In this document: positions 33,336 through 44,735 of the stretch, piece after piece | Position numbering within the stretch: position 1 is the first letter of the stretch | Layout: each line of letters begins with the position of its first letter | NCBI RefSeq assembly: GCF_000427685.1 | Contig: NZ_KE386573.1 | Location: 2,836,938 to 2,900,937 of the forward strand | Direction: 5' to 3' | Source of the DNA: Haloplanus natans DSM 17983 | GTDB lineage: Archaea > Halobacteriota > Halobacteria > Halobacteriales > Haloferacaceae | Length of the DNA stretch: 64,000 nucleotides | Made by a program: the position numbers and the translations under genes | The notes under the pieces: generated by a model | Seen by the model: the letters and a program-made list of their open reading frames with translations, nothing else | The model's database searches: none | What the model was told of the DNA's origin: nothing

Positions 33336-33923
33336 ATGACACACGTAGCTGTCGTCGGTGGTGGTCCCGCAGGACTGAGCGCGGCGTTGTTCACGGCGAA
33401 AAACGGCCTCGAGACGACCGTCTTCGACACCGACGGGACGTGGATGCACAAGGCCCATCTGTTCAACTACCCCGGCATCGGCTCCATCGGTGGCGACGCG
33501 TTCATAAGCGTGACCCGCCAGCAGGTCGACGACTTCGGCGTCGACCGTCGGCAGGGGTCGGAGGTGACGGGCGTCTCGGCGGACGGGGACGGCTTCGTCG
33601 TCACGACCGGAAGCGAGGAGGTCGACGCCGACTACGTCGTTCTGGCGACGGGAGCGGACCGGAGCCTCGCCGAGGATCTGGACTGTGAGACGACAGAGGA
33701 CGGCACCGTCGACGTGGGCGTCGAGATGGAGACGAGCGTCGCCGACGCCTACGCCACGGGCGCGATGGTGCGCGCCGAGGAGTGGCAGGCGGTCATCGCC
33801 GCGGGCGACGGCGCCGCGGCGGCGCTCAACATCCTGAGTAAAGAAAAAGGCGAACATTACCACGACTTCGACGTGCCGGGGGATGCGACCGAGACGTTCG
33901 GCGGGATGGTCGACGAGGGGTAG
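33336..33923 (+). CDS. Short thioredoxin-reductase-like FAD oxidoreductase
   Basis: A 195-residue flavoprotein. It begins with the FAD Rossmann motif [19 protein letters not shown] and has a second FAD contact region [11 protein letters not shown] near residue 108 and the C-terminal [22 protein letters not shown]. It lacks the inserted NAD(P)H domain and the CxxC redox centre of true thioredoxin reductase (usually about 300-350 residues). It is thus a compact variant that may reduce a partner by another route. The chosen ATG at 33336 precedes the Rossmann strand by one residue pair. Its 3' end runs into a 63-bp tandem duplication. Confidence 0.8.
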
Positions 33924-34034
33924 GCGGTGGGGAACGTCTCGGTCGCCACGGCCGAGACGGTCGGCGGGATGGTCGACGAGGGGTAGGCGGTGGGGAACGT
34001 CTCGGTCGCCACGGCCGAGACGGTCGGCGACAGG
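33891..34034 (+). repeat. 63-bp tandem duplication with hairpin
   Basis: Two 63-bp units (33891-33953 and 33954-34016) differ at a single base and are followed by a partial third. The first unit starts in the last codons of the flavoprotein gene and includes its TAG stop. Each unit contains the hairpin CGTCTCGG-N9-CCGAGACG. Because 63 is a multiple of three, the original 3' end and frame are repeated exactly. The hairpins could act in transcript termination. Confidence 0.9.
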
Positions 34035-34080
34035 GAGTAGCGACCCAACGTACAAGCCGCCCGCGGCCCTACCCCTTCAT

Positions 34081-34434
34081 ATGTCCTCACTCGCGGACGA
34101 ACCGTGCGAAGCCTGTACGAGCGACGACGAACCCCTCACCAGCGACGAGTACTCGGAGTATCTCGATAGCGTCCGGTCGGACGTGTGGGAAGTCGTGGAC
34201 GACCACCACCTGACGGCCCACTACGAGTTCGACGACTTCCGTGACGCCCTGGAGTTCACGTACGAGATCGGCGAACTCGCGGAGGAGGAGTGGCACCACC
34301 CCGATATCGCGCTCGCGTGGGGGGAAGTCGAGGTGGAGATGTGGACCCACAAGATCGACGGCCTCCACAAGACGGACTTCGTGATGGCGGCGCGGATGGA
34401 CCGCCTCTACGGGCCGTACGAACCCGAGGAGTAA
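34081..34434 (+). CDS. phhB: Pterin-4a-carbinolamine dehydratase family protein
   Basis: A 117-residue protein of the PCD/DCoH family, which dehydrates 4a-hydroxytetrahydropterins. The active-site signature HHPDIALAW (near residue 73), followed by Trp/His spacing [13 protein letters not shown], is complete. The N-terminus includes CEAC, a small insertion typical of haloarchaeal members. No aromatic amino-acid hydroxylase is nearby; in archaea the enzyme may serve pterin or molybdopterin metabolism. ATG at 34081 follows the duplicated hairpin region by about 50 nt. Confidence 0.9.
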
Positions 34435-38118: not shown

Positions 38119-38404
38119 GCTGGAAAAGCGGCAGCAGCCGACCCACACCCGGTCGGGGAGACGGGTGGGGCCGGACGGAACGTCGGTCGGGGAGACGCTG
38201 CGGGGACCGACGCCACCGGCACACGGGGAGGTCGTCCGGAAGGCGTCGGCAGTTCCACGTACACCCGGTGGGCGCATAAATCCATCAAAGGCTTAGATTC
38301 GCGTTTCAGTCTCGAGGGGCCTTCGGATGTCGGACGCCCCGATGGGCGGGCACGCCGGCGACGGACGGAGTGACCGTCGACGTTGGGAGCCGGCCGAGGG
38401 GCGA

Positions 38405-38734
38405 TCACTCGATGTCGACGTGTTCCGAGCCATCGAACGCCCCGTCGAGTTCGTCGCTGGGATTCTGCGCGACGGCCGAGCCGAGCGCGCCGATACCGCC
38501 GAGATCGCCGGTGATCCACGTGATGCTCCCGCTGGATTCGAGGAATCCGAACCGCCCGTTCGCCTCGTCGATAACGAGGACGCCAGCGAAGAAGCCGTTC
38601 TGGCCTTCCGCGATAGTCGCGTCGTACCCCTGTGCTTCGAGCTGTGGCCGGTAGCGCTCCAGCCGTTCTTCGAGCCGTTCTCGCTCCGCGTTCGTGAGCT
38701 GATCGAAATACTGGGTCAGTGGTTCGTCGGTCAT
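38405..38734 (-). CDS. Small protein, last gene of the DUF2589 operon
   Basis: An unrecognised 109-residue acidic protein. Residues 1-35 are helical with many charges (QLTNAERERLEERLERYRPQ), and 40-95 are beta/Gly-rich (GFFAGVLVIDEANGRFGF, ITWITGDLGGIGALGSAV). It has no signal peptide or clear membrane helix, though the Gly-rich stretch is mildly hydrophobic. Its ATG overlaps the stop of the helix-hairpin-helix gene by 4 nt, so it is co-translated. This makes it a constant-looking fourth part of the cassette. No function is assigned. Confidence 0.6.
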   Translation of the reverse strand: MTDEPLTQYFDQLTNAERERLEERLERYRPQLEAQGYDATIAEGQNGFFAGVLVIDEANGRFGFLESSGSITWITGDLGGIGALGSAVAQNPSDELDGAFDGSEHVDIE

Positions 38735-39612
38735 GTCTCCTCTTCCGTCGTGTCGGGTTCGTCGCTCGATTCGTCGGCCTCGGTCCCGGGACGCATCGCC
38801 GCTGCGTCCTCGAGAGCCCGGAGTTTGGTGCTTGCTTCGTCGATCCATCGCTCCGCACGCTCGGACGAGACGCTCACCGACTCGGAAGTCGTCGCCTCGG
38901 CTATCTCCTCGGGTGAGCGCTCGACCAGCGACGAGAGCGCCGTGATCCCCGCGTCCCGGAGCCGGGTCCCGAACACGGGACCGATCCCGTCGACGAGTTC
39001 GACCGGAAGCGCCTCGTCGTCCGCCGACAGGAGCGCGATCAACCCACGGGCTTCGTCGAGCCAGGCCGCCGTCGTCTCCGGTGACACGTCGACGCCTTCG
39101 CGCTCGACGGCCGCGGAGAGCTCCGTCGGCGATCGATCGACGAGATCCGTCAGCCGTTCGATGCCCACGGCTTCGAGCGCCGCCCGATGCTCCGGGTCGA
39201 TGTCCTCGACGGCGTCGATCGATTCGTCCACGACCGTCGAGGCGTCCTCGTCCACGCGCTCGCGTGCCTTCGACGGACCGTCGTCGGTCGGGACGAGTCC
39301 GTCCAGGTCGTCGAGGTCCCCCCGTTCGAGGAGTTCGAGCAGATCGACGGTGAAGGTGAGTTGCGAGGCGTCCGCCTCGCCGGCGTCGGTCACGAACACC
39401 TCGGTTCCGCGTTTCGTCTCCTCGGCGACCAACCCCACGTCGAGGGTGATTTCCACCTCGCTCGCGTGGTAGACTGGGACGGCGACGTCGTCGGGGACGG
39501 TCCCCGATTCCAGAAGCTCCGCCAGTCGCTGGTGTCCGTGCTGGAGTGCCTGCATCTCCGCCTCGGAGAACGAGTCGTACAGCGACGCGAGGAACTCGGT
39601 GAGTTCAGTCAT
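38731..39612 (-). CDS. Helix-hairpin-helix protein with DUF2589-like N-terminus
   Basis: A 293-residue cytoplasmic protein. Residues 1-30 are a helix, and 40-90 contain VPVYHASEVEITLDVGL, which resembles the VPLL...IPYFEVSRVTVDFNVKL core of the DUF2589 protein two genes upstream. Residues 140-265 contain two helix-hairpin-helix repeats (ALEAVGIERLTDLVDRSP; LVDGIGPVFGTRLRDAGITAL), a fold used for DNA or protein contact. The tail is acidic. It overlaps its upstream gene by 8 nt and its downstream gene by 4 nt. A role as adaptor between the beta-sandwich proteins and another target is an inference. Confidence 0.65.
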   Translation of the reverse strand: MTELTEFLASLYDSFSEAEMQALQHGHQRLAELLESGTVPDDVAVPVYHASEVEITLDVGLVAEETKRGTEVFVTDAGEADASQLTFTVDLLELLERGDLDDLDGLVPTDDGPSKARERVDEDASTVVDESIDAVEDIDPEHRAALEAVGIERLTDLVDRSPTELSAAVEREGVDVSPETTAAWLDEARGLIALLSADDEALPVELVDGIGPVFGTRLRDAGITALSSLVERSPEEIAEATTSESVSVSSERAERWIDEASTKLRALEDAAAMRPGTEADESSDEPDTTEEET

Positions 39613-40222
39613 CGCGGTTGTCCGACTCGGCTTCGTGCACCCGTTCCGGCGTGATCGACGACGCCCGACGACGCTTCTCGAGGCGTTCGGTTCGCTTCTC
39701 GTCGACCCGTTCGAAGACGGCGTTGTTCGCCGCCCGTTCCAACATCTCCATGCCGGTCGATCCGTTCTCGAGTTCGGCGACCATCCGGATGTTCATGTCG
39801 AACTGTGCTTTCGTCGTCCGGTCGAGCGTCGTCGACTGGCCGGCCGGTTTGACGTTCAGACGGCGGGGCGCCGAGACGCGACCCAGTTTCGTCGATCGAT
39901 CGGTCCCTTCGGTCTCCGTGATCCGCGCGGAGAACTCCTCCTCGATCTTGCTGACCTGTAGGTTCGGCAACGAGAGGAACAACAGGAGGGGAACGTCGAT
40001 CTCCTTGCTGACGCGTCGCTCCCGTCCGGTCTCCGGGTCGACCTCGGTCGTCGTGTAGCCGAACGTCACCGTGACCAGGTCGCCGTCCGAATCGAACCCG
40101 GTTTCCAGCAGCATCTCGATCGTCTCGGACTGAGACTGAATGCTGGCGTCGATAGCCGCCACCAGCGGCCCGGAAAAGAGGACCGAGAGCGGCAGGTTCT
40201 CCAGATCGTCGAGTCCCGTCAC
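39605..40222 (-). CDS. DUF2589 family protein (second gene of operon)
   Basis: A 205-residue protein of the uncharacterised DUF2589 family. The family pattern is visible: LSVLFSGPLVAAIDASIQ (residues 12-29) with METGF-like LLETGF, the beta segment DLVTVTFGYTT, VPLLLFLSLPNLQVSKIEEE near 77, and the C-terminal FDMNIRMVAELENGSTGMEM near 145. The end is charged and helical (RTERLEKRRRASS). It has no export signal. It follows a paralogue by 7 nt and overlaps the helix-hairpin-helix gene by 8 nt, indicating an obligate set. Confidence 0.75.
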   Translation of the reverse strand: MTGLDDLENLPLSVLFSGPLVAAIDASIQSQSETIEMLLETGFDSDGDLVTVTFGYTTTEVDPETGRERRVSKEIDVPLLLFLSLPNLQVSKIEEEFSARITETEGTDRSTKLGRVSAPRRLNVKPAGQSTTLDRTTKAQFDMNIRMVAELENGSTGMEMLERAANNAVFERVDEKRTERLEKRRRASSITPERVHEAESDNRDD

Positions 40223-40229
40223 GCTTCAC

Positions 40230-40838
40230 CTACGGACTCGGCGACGACTCGGTCGTCTCCGTTTCGGTGATCGTCTCTTCCAGAACGTCGAACACTCTGG
40301 TGACGCCCGTCGGCGGTTCGACGCTCTCCGCCTCGACGTGGACGCTCTGGTCGTAGGTCCGCTCGATCTTCTGGGACTGGCTCTTCTGTTTCTGGTAACT
40401 CGCACTCACCTTCCACTTGACGTTGCCCGTGAACCAGCCCTGTTTGCCCTTGACCTCGCTGTCGATATCGAACTTGCTCGACGTCGCGTACGTCTGGACG
40501 GAGTTCAGTTTGACGTTGAAATCGACGGTGACCCGGCTGACTTCGAAGTACGGAATGTTGACCAGCAACAGGAGCGGCACCCGCATCTCGAACTCCTTTG
40601 TCGACTCGGCGCCCGATTCGTCGTCGATGACCGTCTTCTTGTACGAAAACGTCACGTACACCGGCTTCCGCGACGACTCCCAGTCGTCGGCCGCGTCCTG
40701 GAAGCCGACGTCCTGGATGAACTTCGCGGCCGTCATCGACGCGTCGGCGTTCGCCTCGACGGCCGCGTTGAGTGGCCCGCCGATGATCGTCCCGTAGGGA
40801 ATACTACCTAACTCGCCGGGGAAGTTTGGATTGGGCAT
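40230..40838 (-). CDS. DUF2589 family protein (first gene of operon)
   Basis: A 202-residue DUF2589 protein, closer to the family consensus than its neighbour. It has IIGGPLNAAVEANADASMTA (residues 18-37) and FIQDVGF, then VYVTFSYKKTV, RVPLLLLVNIPYFEVSRVTV near 87, VDFNVKLNSV, a polar middle part, and the C-terminal HVEAESVEPPTGVTRVFDVL near 170. The chosen ATG at 40838 gives a short MPNPNFPGEL leader; an upstream Met 8 codons earlier is possible. It heads a four-gene operon (40838 to 38405). DUF2589 has no known function. Confidence 0.8.
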   Translation of the reverse strand: MPNPNFPGELGSIPYGTIIGGPLNAAVEANADASMTAAKFIQDVGFQDAADDWESSRKPVYVTFSYKKTVIDDESGAESTKEFEMRVPLLLLVNIPYFEVSRVTVDFNVKLNSVQTYATSSKFDIDSEVKGKQGWFTGNVKWKVSASYQKQKSQSQKIERTYDQSVHVEAESVEPPTGVTRVFDVLEETITETETTESSPSP

Positions 40839-40954
40839 ATGATACCTCAAACAGCTTGACACTCGGAGAGATGTTAAGTGTTTTCGCCGTTACCGGCACT
40901 GAACGGCGCGTTCCGACCGGCTAACCTTATGCTGTCAGCCAGCGTCCGAGTGTC

Positions 40955-43096: not shown

Positions 43097-43585
43097 CTAC
43101 CGAAATCCGGAAGAGCTCCGTCGGCCTGCGTCCTCCTCTGTCCATCGGTCGTGGACGCTCGGGGTGCGACCCGTGTTGGTGACGATCTTTATTCGGATGT
43201 CGCGTAGTCGCTCGCTACCGAGGGTTTCGGCGATCCACTTGTGTGGAGTGTCCCGCGGGAGTTTGCCGAACACGTACAGCGAGGAGTCGGCGGAGACGAA
43301 ATACTGGTCGACGTTCTCGCTCGTCTCCAGTGCCGCCTGGAGTTCGGCGACACGGTTCGGAACGGCGTCGAGAATCATCAGTACGTTCGTTCCCCCGCCG
43401 ACCAGTTCGTAGTCGATGTCGATGGTGAACCGGCGGATAACCCCCTGCTCTTTGAGCCGGTTGATGCGATCCGAGACGGCTGGGGGGGAGAGATCGACCG
43501 CCGACGAGATTTCGTTGTACGTGCGGCGTGCATCTTCCGACAGTAGTTGGAGGATGATGACATCGGTTTCGTCCAGTTCTTGCAT
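43097..43585 (-). CDS. Lrp/AsnC-family transcriptional regulator
   Basis: A 162-residue regulator. The N-terminal winged HTH is residues 3-60 (LDETDVIILQLLSEDARRTY, ISSAVDLSPPAVSDRINRL). The C-terminal RAM-like effector domain covers 65-145. The tail EEDAGRRSSSGFR is extra. Members bind amino acids or small metabolites and act as dimers or octamers. It is followed upstream by a UspA gene on the same strand, 24 nt away, so the two form a probable stress-related pair. Its target genes are not visible. Confidence 0.9.
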   Translation of the reverse strand: MQELDETDVIILQLLSEDARRTYNEISSAVDLSPPAVSDRINRLKEQGVIRRFTIDIDYELVGGGTNVLMILDAVPNRVAELQAALETSENVDQYFVSADSSLYVFGKLPRDTPHKWIAETLGSERLRDIRIKIVTNTGRTPSVHDRWTEEDAGRRSSSGFR

Positions 43586-43609
43586 ATCCTTTCTCCAGAC
43601 GGGGTTGGG

Positions 43610-44029
43610 TTACCGGCTCTCCGAGGCTCCGCCGGTCACCGTCACCGGCAGATCCGTGTTGAGGATGACACCCTGCGTGACGCTTCCGAACAGCGCCTTG
43701 CCCGCGGGGGAGCGCTTGCGTCCACCGAGAACGATGTGGTCGACGTTGGCTCGCTCCGCCAGATCCACGATGCCTTCCTCGGGCGGGGAGTGCGCACTCC
43801 GGACGGTGACCGAGAACCCCTCGTCGTCCAACCGCTCCCGTGCCTCCTTGACGAGGGCGACCCGTTCCGGGCGTTGCATCTCCTTCGGTGCTCGTTCCTC
43901 CTCGCCCGTCAGGACGTGTGTGAGCACGACTTCAACCTCGTCCCTGTCGACGGGGAGGTCGATCAGCGCGGATATCTGCGTTCGTTCACGCTCTCTACTG
44001 CTGTCGAGTGGTACGAGCACCGTGTACAT
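43610..44029 (-). CDS. Universal stress protein UspA family
   Basis: A 139-residue UspA protein. It starts MYTVLVPLDSSRERERTQ and ends with the nucleotide-binding signature VLGGRKRSPAGKALFGSVTQ (residues 106-125), nearly identical to that of the UspA at 19020. Start 44029 is chosen because further upstream sequence belongs to the region invaded by the IS6-type element. It is co-directional with the Lrp gene 24 nt downstream. Confidence 0.9.
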   Translation of the reverse strand: MYTVLVPLDSSRERERTQISALIDLPVDRDEVEVVLTHVLTGEEERAPKEMQRPERVALVKEARERLDDEGFSVTVRSAHSPPEEGIVDLAERANVDHIVLGGRKRSPAGKALFGSVTQGVILNTDLPVTVTGGASESR

Positions 44030-44096
44030 ACCCGCAACTGCTTGGTCGCGTAAAGTTGAGCGTAGAGAGTGGGGCGTGCTGATTTCTAAGTTGTCC

Positions 44097-44735
44097 ATGC
44101 ACGAAATCACACGCCTCAGCGACGGTAGCGACTGGATCGAATTAGAGTTTGTGAAGCGTCAGCTGACACCCGAGTTCGCGATCCGGCTCGGTATTCGGAT
44201 GCACGTGGCAGGACTATCACTTTCGAATACTACCTCGATTCTTGAAAGGTTGGGTGTCGAACGCTCTCGAGCGGCCGTCCACAGCCGGGTGCAGAAGGCC
44301 GACCTACAGCCCGAAGGCGGTGCGAGTCCGGATCACGTTGCACTCGACGAAACCGTGATTCGAATCAACGGACAGCAGTATTGGCTGTATGCTGCCGTCG
44401 ATCCTGAAACGAACGCATTCCTTCATATCCGGCTTCTTAGCACGTATACGACCGTCCTAACCGAAATCTTCCCGAGTGAATTACGCGAGAAACACGATGT
44501 CGAAACCACCGTGTTTCTCGTCGACGATGCTCAGTGGCTCCAAACTGCCCTCGACCGACACGGCCTCGATTGCAGACACGAATTCCATGGCAATCGGAAT
44601 ACCGCCGAACGTATATTTAGAGAAGTGAAAGGCCAAACAGTTTTGTTTTCAAATACGTTCAACCACGTAGAGCCGACGACCGTAGAAACGTGGCTTCAAG
44701 CCCTTGCCGTCTGGTAGAATCGATGCCAAGGTTAA
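44097..44735 (+). mobile_element. IS6-family transposase with early stop
   Basis: DDE transposase of the haloarchaeal IS6 type. The 206-residue product (44097-44717) has the N-terminal HTH (IRMHVAGLSLSNTTSILERL), the first Asp in HVALDETVIRING, the second in TVFLVDDAQWLQ and the Glu in NRNTAERIFREVKG. It stops at TAG after VETWLQALAVW. In the same frame five more codons (NRCQG) and TAA follow at 44718-44735, which look like the normal family ending. The stop is thus probably a late nonsense mutation. No terminal inverted repeats were found at either side, so the element is likely degenerate. An IclR gene fragment abuts its right end. Confidence 0.8.

What the first reader, a model, noticed from the sequence alone, without database searches (positions are those of the whole stretch)
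38405..40838. Four-gene DUF2589 cassette: two beta proteins, a helix-hairpin-helix protein and a small partner
Four genes on one strand are packed with 7-nt spacing and 8- and 4-nt overlaps. Two encode DUF2589 proteins with matching landmarks (GGPL or SGPL, VPLL...IPYFEVSRVTVDF, C-terminal TGVTRVFDVL). The third fuses a segment similar to the DUF2589 core to helix-hairpin-helix repeats. All lack export signals. The arrangement suggests a cytoplasmic complex in which related beta-sandwich subunits assemble and a helix-hairpin-helix subunit links them to nucleic acid or another protein. I know of no described function for this family.
Basis: partly seen in the sequence, partly recalled or inferred. 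Interest (0 to 1): 0.75.

Follow-up and report, generated by a model that had tools for sequence, protein, structure and literature searches.

The report
DUF2589 gene cassette with long hairpin
A salt-loving archaeon carries a four-gene block, related to blocks scattered through many bacteria and archaea, whose main protein has a long, regular, membrane-style beta-hairpin; nobody appears to have described what such blocks do, and they may be a new way to punch holes in cells or to organise enzymes.

Summary
The cassette is real. A (40230-40838) and B (39605-40222) are DUF2589 proteins; C (38731-39612) is a conserved ~100-aa domain plus two helix-hairpin-helix (HHH) units; D (38405-38734) matches no family.

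All four genes occur in 16 of 16 distinct haloarchaeal copies, and the block is gained or lost as a unit. Elsewhere DUF2589 heads other conserved operons: A-S2-S3 in most bacteria sampled (S2, S3: no Pfam match in the members scanned) and A-B-C' in methanogen/Archaeoglobus-type archaea. S2 and C' are homologous; C resembles them weakly. Among 395 Bacteroidota genomes, every strong S2 (17) sits with DUF2589 (28).

HHH is dispensable (8 of 16), so the nucleic-acid link is not supported. The conserved feature is A's ~75-residue amphipathic hairpin, whose length changes almost only in steps of four, two residues per arm; length and alternation resemble aerolysin-type pore hairpins. Some bacterial copies adjoin subtilase, caspase, papain, patatin or wall-hydrolase genes.

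Best reading: an accessory complex whose A subunit inserts or assembles through its hairpins, probably a regulated pore or killing module. Hairpin well supported; pore inferred (0.3). A scaffold is the main rival. No function was tested.

The parts
40230..40838 (-). Gene A (P0001, 202 aa): DUF2589 with N-terminal helix, four-stranded sheet and long hairpin
   Evidence: PF11655 E=2.7e-27; AF2 model pLDDT 70.9, pTM 0.54
40323..40547 (-). Part of A encoding residues 98-172, the proposed ~75-residue amphipathic beta-hairpin with a Gly-Trp tip at 134-135
   Evidence: strands E98-118 and E153-172 predicted, 116-155 low confidence; alternation and length quantisation
39605..40222 (-). Gene B (P0002, 205 aa): DUF2589 paralogue, GTG start, without the regular hairpin of A
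   Evidence: PF11655 E=2.4e-12; hairpin region of haloarchaeal B proteins
38731..39612 (-). Gene C (P0003, 293 aa): conserved N-terminal domain plus two HHH units
   Evidence: HHH_5 E=3.1e-8; alignment
39313..39612 (-). Conserved N-terminal ~100 aa of C, weakly related to S2/C' and through them to the DUF2589 core
   Evidence: conserved in all 8 aligned; E=0.014 to the S2 profile
38827..39222 (-). Two HHH units of C (residues 131-262); present in 8 of 16 haloarchaeal copies
38405..38734 (-). Gene D (P0004, 109 aa): small alpha/beta protein, conserved in all haloarchaeal copies, no known family
   Evidence: model pLDDT 63.7
38312..40926 (.). Unit of gain and loss: DNA similarity to same-genus relatives stops near 38,287-38,315 and resumes near 40,924-40,927 (one relative: 40,986)
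   Evidence: blastn

Best explanation
The cassette encodes a cytoplasmic hetero-oligomer built of DUF2589-type subunits. A is the active subunit: a compact cap (N-terminal helix and four-stranded sheet) carrying a ~75-residue amphipathic beta-hairpin. B (a DUF2589 paralogue without the regular hairpin) and C (half-core subunit) hold A soluble and regulate it; D and the C tail are lineage-specific accessories. When triggered, A hairpins from several copies associate, most likely into a beta-barrel that breaches a membrane, so the block acts as an accessory killing or self-killing (conflict) module; in some bacteria an adjacent protease may do the triggering. Shown here: co-occurrence, gain/loss as a unit, shared A/B ancestry, hairpin regularity. 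Inferred: complex formation, roles of B, C and D, oligomerisation, membrane insertion, trigger, biological role.
For: Hairpin: in 79 diverse A proteins the 98-172 segment is 74.6 +/- 2.3 residues, mean Ser+Thr 22.9%; hydrophobic alternation p=0.0004 (116-133) and 0.037 (137-152) by shuffling; F107-A170 length is 55, 59, 63, 67 or 65, i.e. 78 of 79 fall in steps of four. Over 138 distinct DUF2589 segments 117 lie in the series 55/59/63/67/71/79/83, and 17 of the 21 exceptions are B-type or second/third copies. Control: 0 of 579 other ORFs of 150 aa or more at the same loci reach the A median alternation; among the highest scorers are two proteins of outer-membrane type (L100, L106: same family by sequence; DcaP tally of 2). 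Passages of PMC4823867 give for aerolysin-family insertion strands plus loop a mean of 75 residues (s.d. 8) and Thr+Ser 23-44%. Conflict-like spread: 9 of 145, 25 of 392, 28 of 395, 9 of 398 genomes; clean empty sites. Neighbouring enzymes in 18 of 110 non-haloarchaeal loci, duplicates included.
Against: No structural match: no Foldseek PDB hit with E below 0.5; the hairpin tip has pLDDT 26-49. A regular hairpin need not insert into a membrane. Window A has 21% Ser+Thr, under the 23-44% range, and only 38 of 79 are at 23% or more. In several haloarchaeal A proteins (L019, L024-L026, L086, L088) the hairpin is Gly-rich, shortened or off-series. B of other archaea also alternates strongly (0.47-0.92), and window B scores 0.547, so alternation is not unique to A. 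No enzyme gene belongs to the haloarchaeal cassette. The enzyme association has no formal background test, and half of it is one Bacteroidota subtilase lineage. No PADLOC model hits A, B or C. The only functional datum, up-regulation on lactate in Archaeoglobus fulgidus (PMC3949148, one passage), does not suggest killing.
Confidence: 0.3

Rival explanations
1. A soluble scaffold or assembly (filament, shell or adaptor) in which the A hairpins make subunit-subunit sheets; enzymes, where present, are docked cargo.
For: Regular hairpins also build tubes and filaments; no export signal is apparent; several related subunits; varied neighbours with or without enzymes; charged or HHH tails on C suit docking.
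Against: Ser/Thr-rich, alternating, step-of-four hairpin with an aromatic tip is more than docking needs; no enzyme in the haloarchaeal cassette.
Confidence: 0.3
2. An adaptive, non-killing stress or metabolic complex (for example a chaperone) retained in some strains.
For: AF0414-AF0417, called DUF2589-related, rise on lactate (PMC3949148, one passage).
Against: Sparse, strain-level presence (9 of 145), clean empty sites, and no stable metabolic partner gene across loci.
Confidence: 0.2
3. One reading: the HHH subunit tethers the complex to nucleic acid.
For: C has two HHH units, HHH_5 above the Pfam cut-off; Desulfotignum and Geopsychrobacter operons have a fourth gene that looks HHH-like by eye (L092, L118; L118 E=0.25 against the haloarchaeal HHH profile).
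Against: HHH is absent from C in 8 of 16 haloarchaeal copies; no HHH match in C' or S2 members scanned.
Confidence: 0.1
4. A component of phage tails or contractile injection systems.
For: A few relatives on viral contigs (4 loci); weak NCBIfam CIS12 hit on C (E=5.6e-4, far under its cut-off).
Against: Sheath family PF04984 found in 25 of 145 genomes but in only 3 of the 9 with DUF2589, all one genus, and not in the window's own genome; no meaningful PHROG match.
Confidence: 0.05

Closest known systems
DUF2589 (Pfam PF11655)
   Same: A and B are members by score; the family has no known function.
   Different: The operon context (A-S2-S3, A-B-C', A-B-C-D) and the quantised hairpin were found in no paper located.
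Aerolysin-family beta-pore-forming proteins (lysenin; PMC4823867, passages read)
   Same: One ~75-residue alternating hairpin, Ser/Thr content near the same range, aromatic residues at the tip.
   Different: No sequence or significant fold match; helix-plus-sheet cap; no apparent export signal; made with paralogous partner subunits.
Bacterial gasdermin systems (PMC12881547, passages read; Johnson 2022 seen only as a citation)
   Same: Protease genes (subtilase, caspase, papain) beside some copies; a soluble, potentially membrane-acting protein.
   Different: No homology detected; no protease beside the haloarchaeal cassette; a minority of loci only.
HHH_5 domain (PF14520)
   Same: C carries two units.
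   Different: Replaced by charged tails in half of the haloarchaeal copies.

Membership tests
DUF2589 (PF11655) | profile score over the curated cut-off of 23 bits | tested here: met
   A 96.5, B 47.9 bits; C has no PF11655 hit at E<=1
Aerolysin-type beta-pore-forming protein | insertion strands plus loop of about 75 residues | tested here: met
   74.6 +/- 2.3 in 79 A proteins; yardstick
Aerolysin-type beta-pore-forming protein | Ser+Thr 23-44% in that segment | tested here: inconclusive
   mean 22.9%, 38 of 79 at 23% or more, window 21%
Aerolysin-type beta-pore-forming protein | aerolysin fold | tested here: inconclusive
   no significant Foldseek PDB match; the hairpin itself is not confidently modelled
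Aerolysin-type beta-pore-forming protein | oligomeric membrane pore | not testable with these tools
   needs protein
Gasdermin system | protease gene beside the pore gene | tested here: not met
   none of the four cassette proteins matches a protease family and the two flanking genes read as a sugar-kinase-like and a lipoprotein-like protein by eye; only some bacterial loci have a protease
Gasdermin system | gasdermin fold | tested here: inconclusive
   no match, modest model
Contractile injection system | sheath gene in the same genome | tested here: not met
   absent from own genome and from 6 of 9 DUF2589 genomes
Anti-phage defence system | accessory unit gained and lost cleanly | tested here: met
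Anti-phage defence system | match to a known defence model | tested here: not met
   A, B, C no PADLOC match; D only E=0.011
Anti-phage defence system | protection against phage | not testable with these tools
   needs a strain test
HHH nucleic-acid adaptor | HHH retained in the subunit across the family | tested here: not met
   8 of 16 copies

The most novel reading that the evidence does not exclude
DUF2589 founds a cytosolic, multi-subunit class of beta-hairpin membrane-breaching complexes shared by archaea and bacteria, with paralogous partners as safety catch and, in some lineages, a dedicated protease, lipase or wall hydrolase as trigger or co-effector.
Probability: 0.25. Interest if true: 0.9.

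Novelty: categorically new. Interest (0 to 1): 0.62.

Why it matters
Pfam lists DUF2589 as a family of unknown function, and the open-access library holds one paper that names it, in passing. Showing that it heads conserved operons across many bacterial and archaeal lineages, with partner families S2, S3 and D that no library named in the members scanned, turns a stray domain into a system that can be tested. If the hairpin inserts into membranes, archaea and bacteria share an unrecognised, multi-subunit pore or killing module; if it builds a scaffold, they share an unrecognised intracellular assembly.

Tried and rejected
PDB sequence searches with A (single and profile), D, S2 and S3 gave nothing significant. 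Folds of A and D: no PDB match; A best E 0.55 and best Z 3.7 (ribosomal small-subunit protein rows), D best E 1.6 and best Z 3.8. The viral library gave one match to A, E=9.7e-10, 26% identity, an unnamed protein, read here as a DUF2589 relative. The pore-former rows are noise-level and are not used as evidence. Contractile injection link: no association. PHROGs, NCBIfam, PADLOC: nothing useful.

Flanking genes of 67 co-directional neighbours: mostly varied; the largest Pfam group was Peptidase_S8 with 3 members. PADLOC hits there were mostly generic helicases and proteases. An HHH link to the L118-type fourth gene stays unproven (E=0.25). Enzyme neighbours were not compared with a genome background; the one internal control is that every subtilase hit among 5,624 ORFs at the loci lies beside the operon, though these are mostly related lineages. 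Patatin genes (L250, L254) lie about 330 and 670 bp upstream, outside the 250-bp list. Weak or by-eye calls (L259 C58 E=0.008; L265; L275; L108/L132 group; the 1493-aa subtilase-like frame upstream in L071/L126) were left out of the count of 18.

Error made: one search used a wrong start column, its numbers are discarded; redone.

Full report
OBSERVATION. The window is haloarchaeal by sequence character and by its relatives. Four minus-strand genes lie at 38405-40838 with a 7-nt gap and 8- and 4-nt overlaps. A and B pass the PF11655 cut-off, C passes HHH_5, D matches nothing.

CONSERVATION. PF11655 was found in 9 of 145 genomes of the class, always as an adjacent A-B pair. Tblastn and profile searches recovered A, B, C and D in all 9 and in 9 loci from named genomes (L080-L088). 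Two of these share a contig length with earlier ones (L081 with G097, L082 with G015), leaving 16 distinct copies, all with four genes. In C only the first ~100 residues are conserved; two HHH units are present in 8 of 16, and charged tails replace them in 8. D is about 50-70% identical to the window copy throughout and has no clear relative at other DUF2589 loci; one 133-aa ORF two genes upstream of a DUF2589 gene in an Opitutia MAG (L110) reaches E=0.013.

UNIT OF GAIN AND LOSS. Same-genus relatives keep the flanking kinase-like and lipoprotein-like genes without the cassette: 4 of 4 relatives with both flanks; similarity breaks at about 38,3xx and 40,92x. Two of them hold a Rieske-like gene and a dehydrogenase-like gene there, one also an ATP-grasp-like gene (by eye). 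In the genus of G009 (Halorubrum, judging by L081 and L082), 6 negative genomes hold both flanking genes; in 5 they are 81-185 bp apart and in one (G006) about 2.2 kb apart, against 2.7 kb with cassette. G008 aligned to L020 gives the cleanest empty site.

WIDER FAMILY. PF11655 occurs in 25 of 392 genomes of the phylum, 28 of 395 Bacteroidota, 9 of 398 Pseudomonadota (phylum names inferred from the locus titles of the centre genomes). A genome-contig scan gave 342 relatives, 80 kept, biased towards the query. Of the 71 non-haloarchaeal loci, 59 have S2 (~230 aa) and 53 have S3 (~190 aa, helical by appearance) (several contigs end too early to tell). Of 20 other-archaeal regions fetched, 12 show A-B-C' and 5 show A-S2-S3; one stops at a contig end and two are short N-terminal fragments. 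C' matches the S2 profile in 12 of 12 at E about 1e-4 or better. In the same 395 Bacteroidota genomes, S2 was found in 20: 17 strong hits (E<=1.5e-8), all in DUF2589-positive genomes, and 3 marginal partial hits in negative ones; 17 of 28 against 0 of 367 gives Fisher p=8e-23, without correction for kinship. Eleven positive genomes lack S2: short fragments, contig ends, or tandem A-A types.

STRUCTURE. AF2 of A with 79 sequences: pLDDT 70.9, pTM 0.54; helix 15-45, strands 61-71, 78-88, 98-118, 153-172, helix 177-187; 116-155 not confident. No PDB match. The unmodelled stretch is nevertheless regular: alternation, a Gly-Trp/Phe tip between arms (F107 to G 27 residues and G to A170 36 residues in 49 of 79; both two shorter, 25 and 34, in 9; other spacings in 11; no clear tip in 10), and lengths in steps of four: 78 of 79, 117 of 138 distinct segments. 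The four exceptions among first-copy A proteins are L019, L024, L123 and L248. Paired two-residue changes on both arms are what a two-faced hairpin permits. The alternation score of A (median 0.68; window 0.653) is reached by 0 of 579 control ORFs, which come from a crude caller and include S2, S3 and some spurious frames; the top control scored 0.653. Window B scores 0.547, C 0.333, D 0.187. D: pLDDT 63.7, helix, four strands, helix; no match.

NEIGHBOURS. Next to bacterial operons: subtilase at 9 loci (7-12 bp downstream in 6), caspase (L140, 18 bp upstream), papain-type (L089, 54 bp), M14 carboxypeptidase (L143), patatin (L250, L254), PG_binding_1 proteins (L114 and L286, the same genome, and L266), DUF922 (L272): 18 of 110 loci, duplicates included. 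Many other neighbours are ordinary genes.

MECHANISM. The shown facts are a co-inherited set of related subunits and a regular ~75-residue hairpin in A. The closest mechanistic parallel is the insertion hairpin of aerolysin-family pores (passages of PMC4823867), and the protease neighbours recall gasdermin loci (passages of PMC12881547). Neither homology is shown. I commit to a regulated hairpin-inserting or barrel-forming complex at 0.3, level with a scaffold at 0.3; the remaining probability is spread over the other readings. The only expression datum is induction on lactate in Archaeoglobus fulgidus (PMC3949148, one passage); that those genes are the A-B-C' type is inference.

NOVELTY. Library searches for DUF2589, PF11655 and AF0414 found one paper that names the family. 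The library is open-access only, so unseen descriptions may exist.

Noticed in passing
window 43416-44717 (+): Long ORF whose second half reads like an insertion-sequence transposase (by eye), 3 kb from the cassette.
   Followed up: no
window 33857-34100: Short tandem repeat visible as repeated peptide units in overlapping ORFs.
   Followed up: no
L183, L185 (same genus): The spot occupied by the cassette holds Rieske-like plus dehydrogenase-like genes (L183) and also an ATP-grasp-like gene (L185): a variable insertion spot.
   Followed up: partly
L074:6068-6361, L075:6163-6489, L277-L280: Short proteins (about 95-110 aa) that match only the DUF2589 N-terminal helix region, two of them read here with a signal-like start; a separate use of that segment.
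   Followed up: no
L092:2636-3358, L118:2685-3401: A fourth gene after A-S2-S3 in Desulfotignum and Geopsychrobacter MAGs that looks HHH-like by eye.
   Followed up: partly
L110:4833-5234: Possible relative of D outside haloarchaea (E=0.013), two genes upstream of a DUF2589 gene.
   Followed up: no
L276:2622-6818: A large SpvB/TcB-like reading frame (named by eye) 233 bp downstream of A-S2-S3.
   Followed up: no
L086:4560-6176, L088:4477-5994: C carries an extra domain of about 200 aa between its N-terminal part and the HHH units.
   Followed up: no
L056:5588-5979: B is split into two short reading frames in one archaeal genome, which may explain a four-gene annotation such as AF0414-AF0417.
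   Followed up: no
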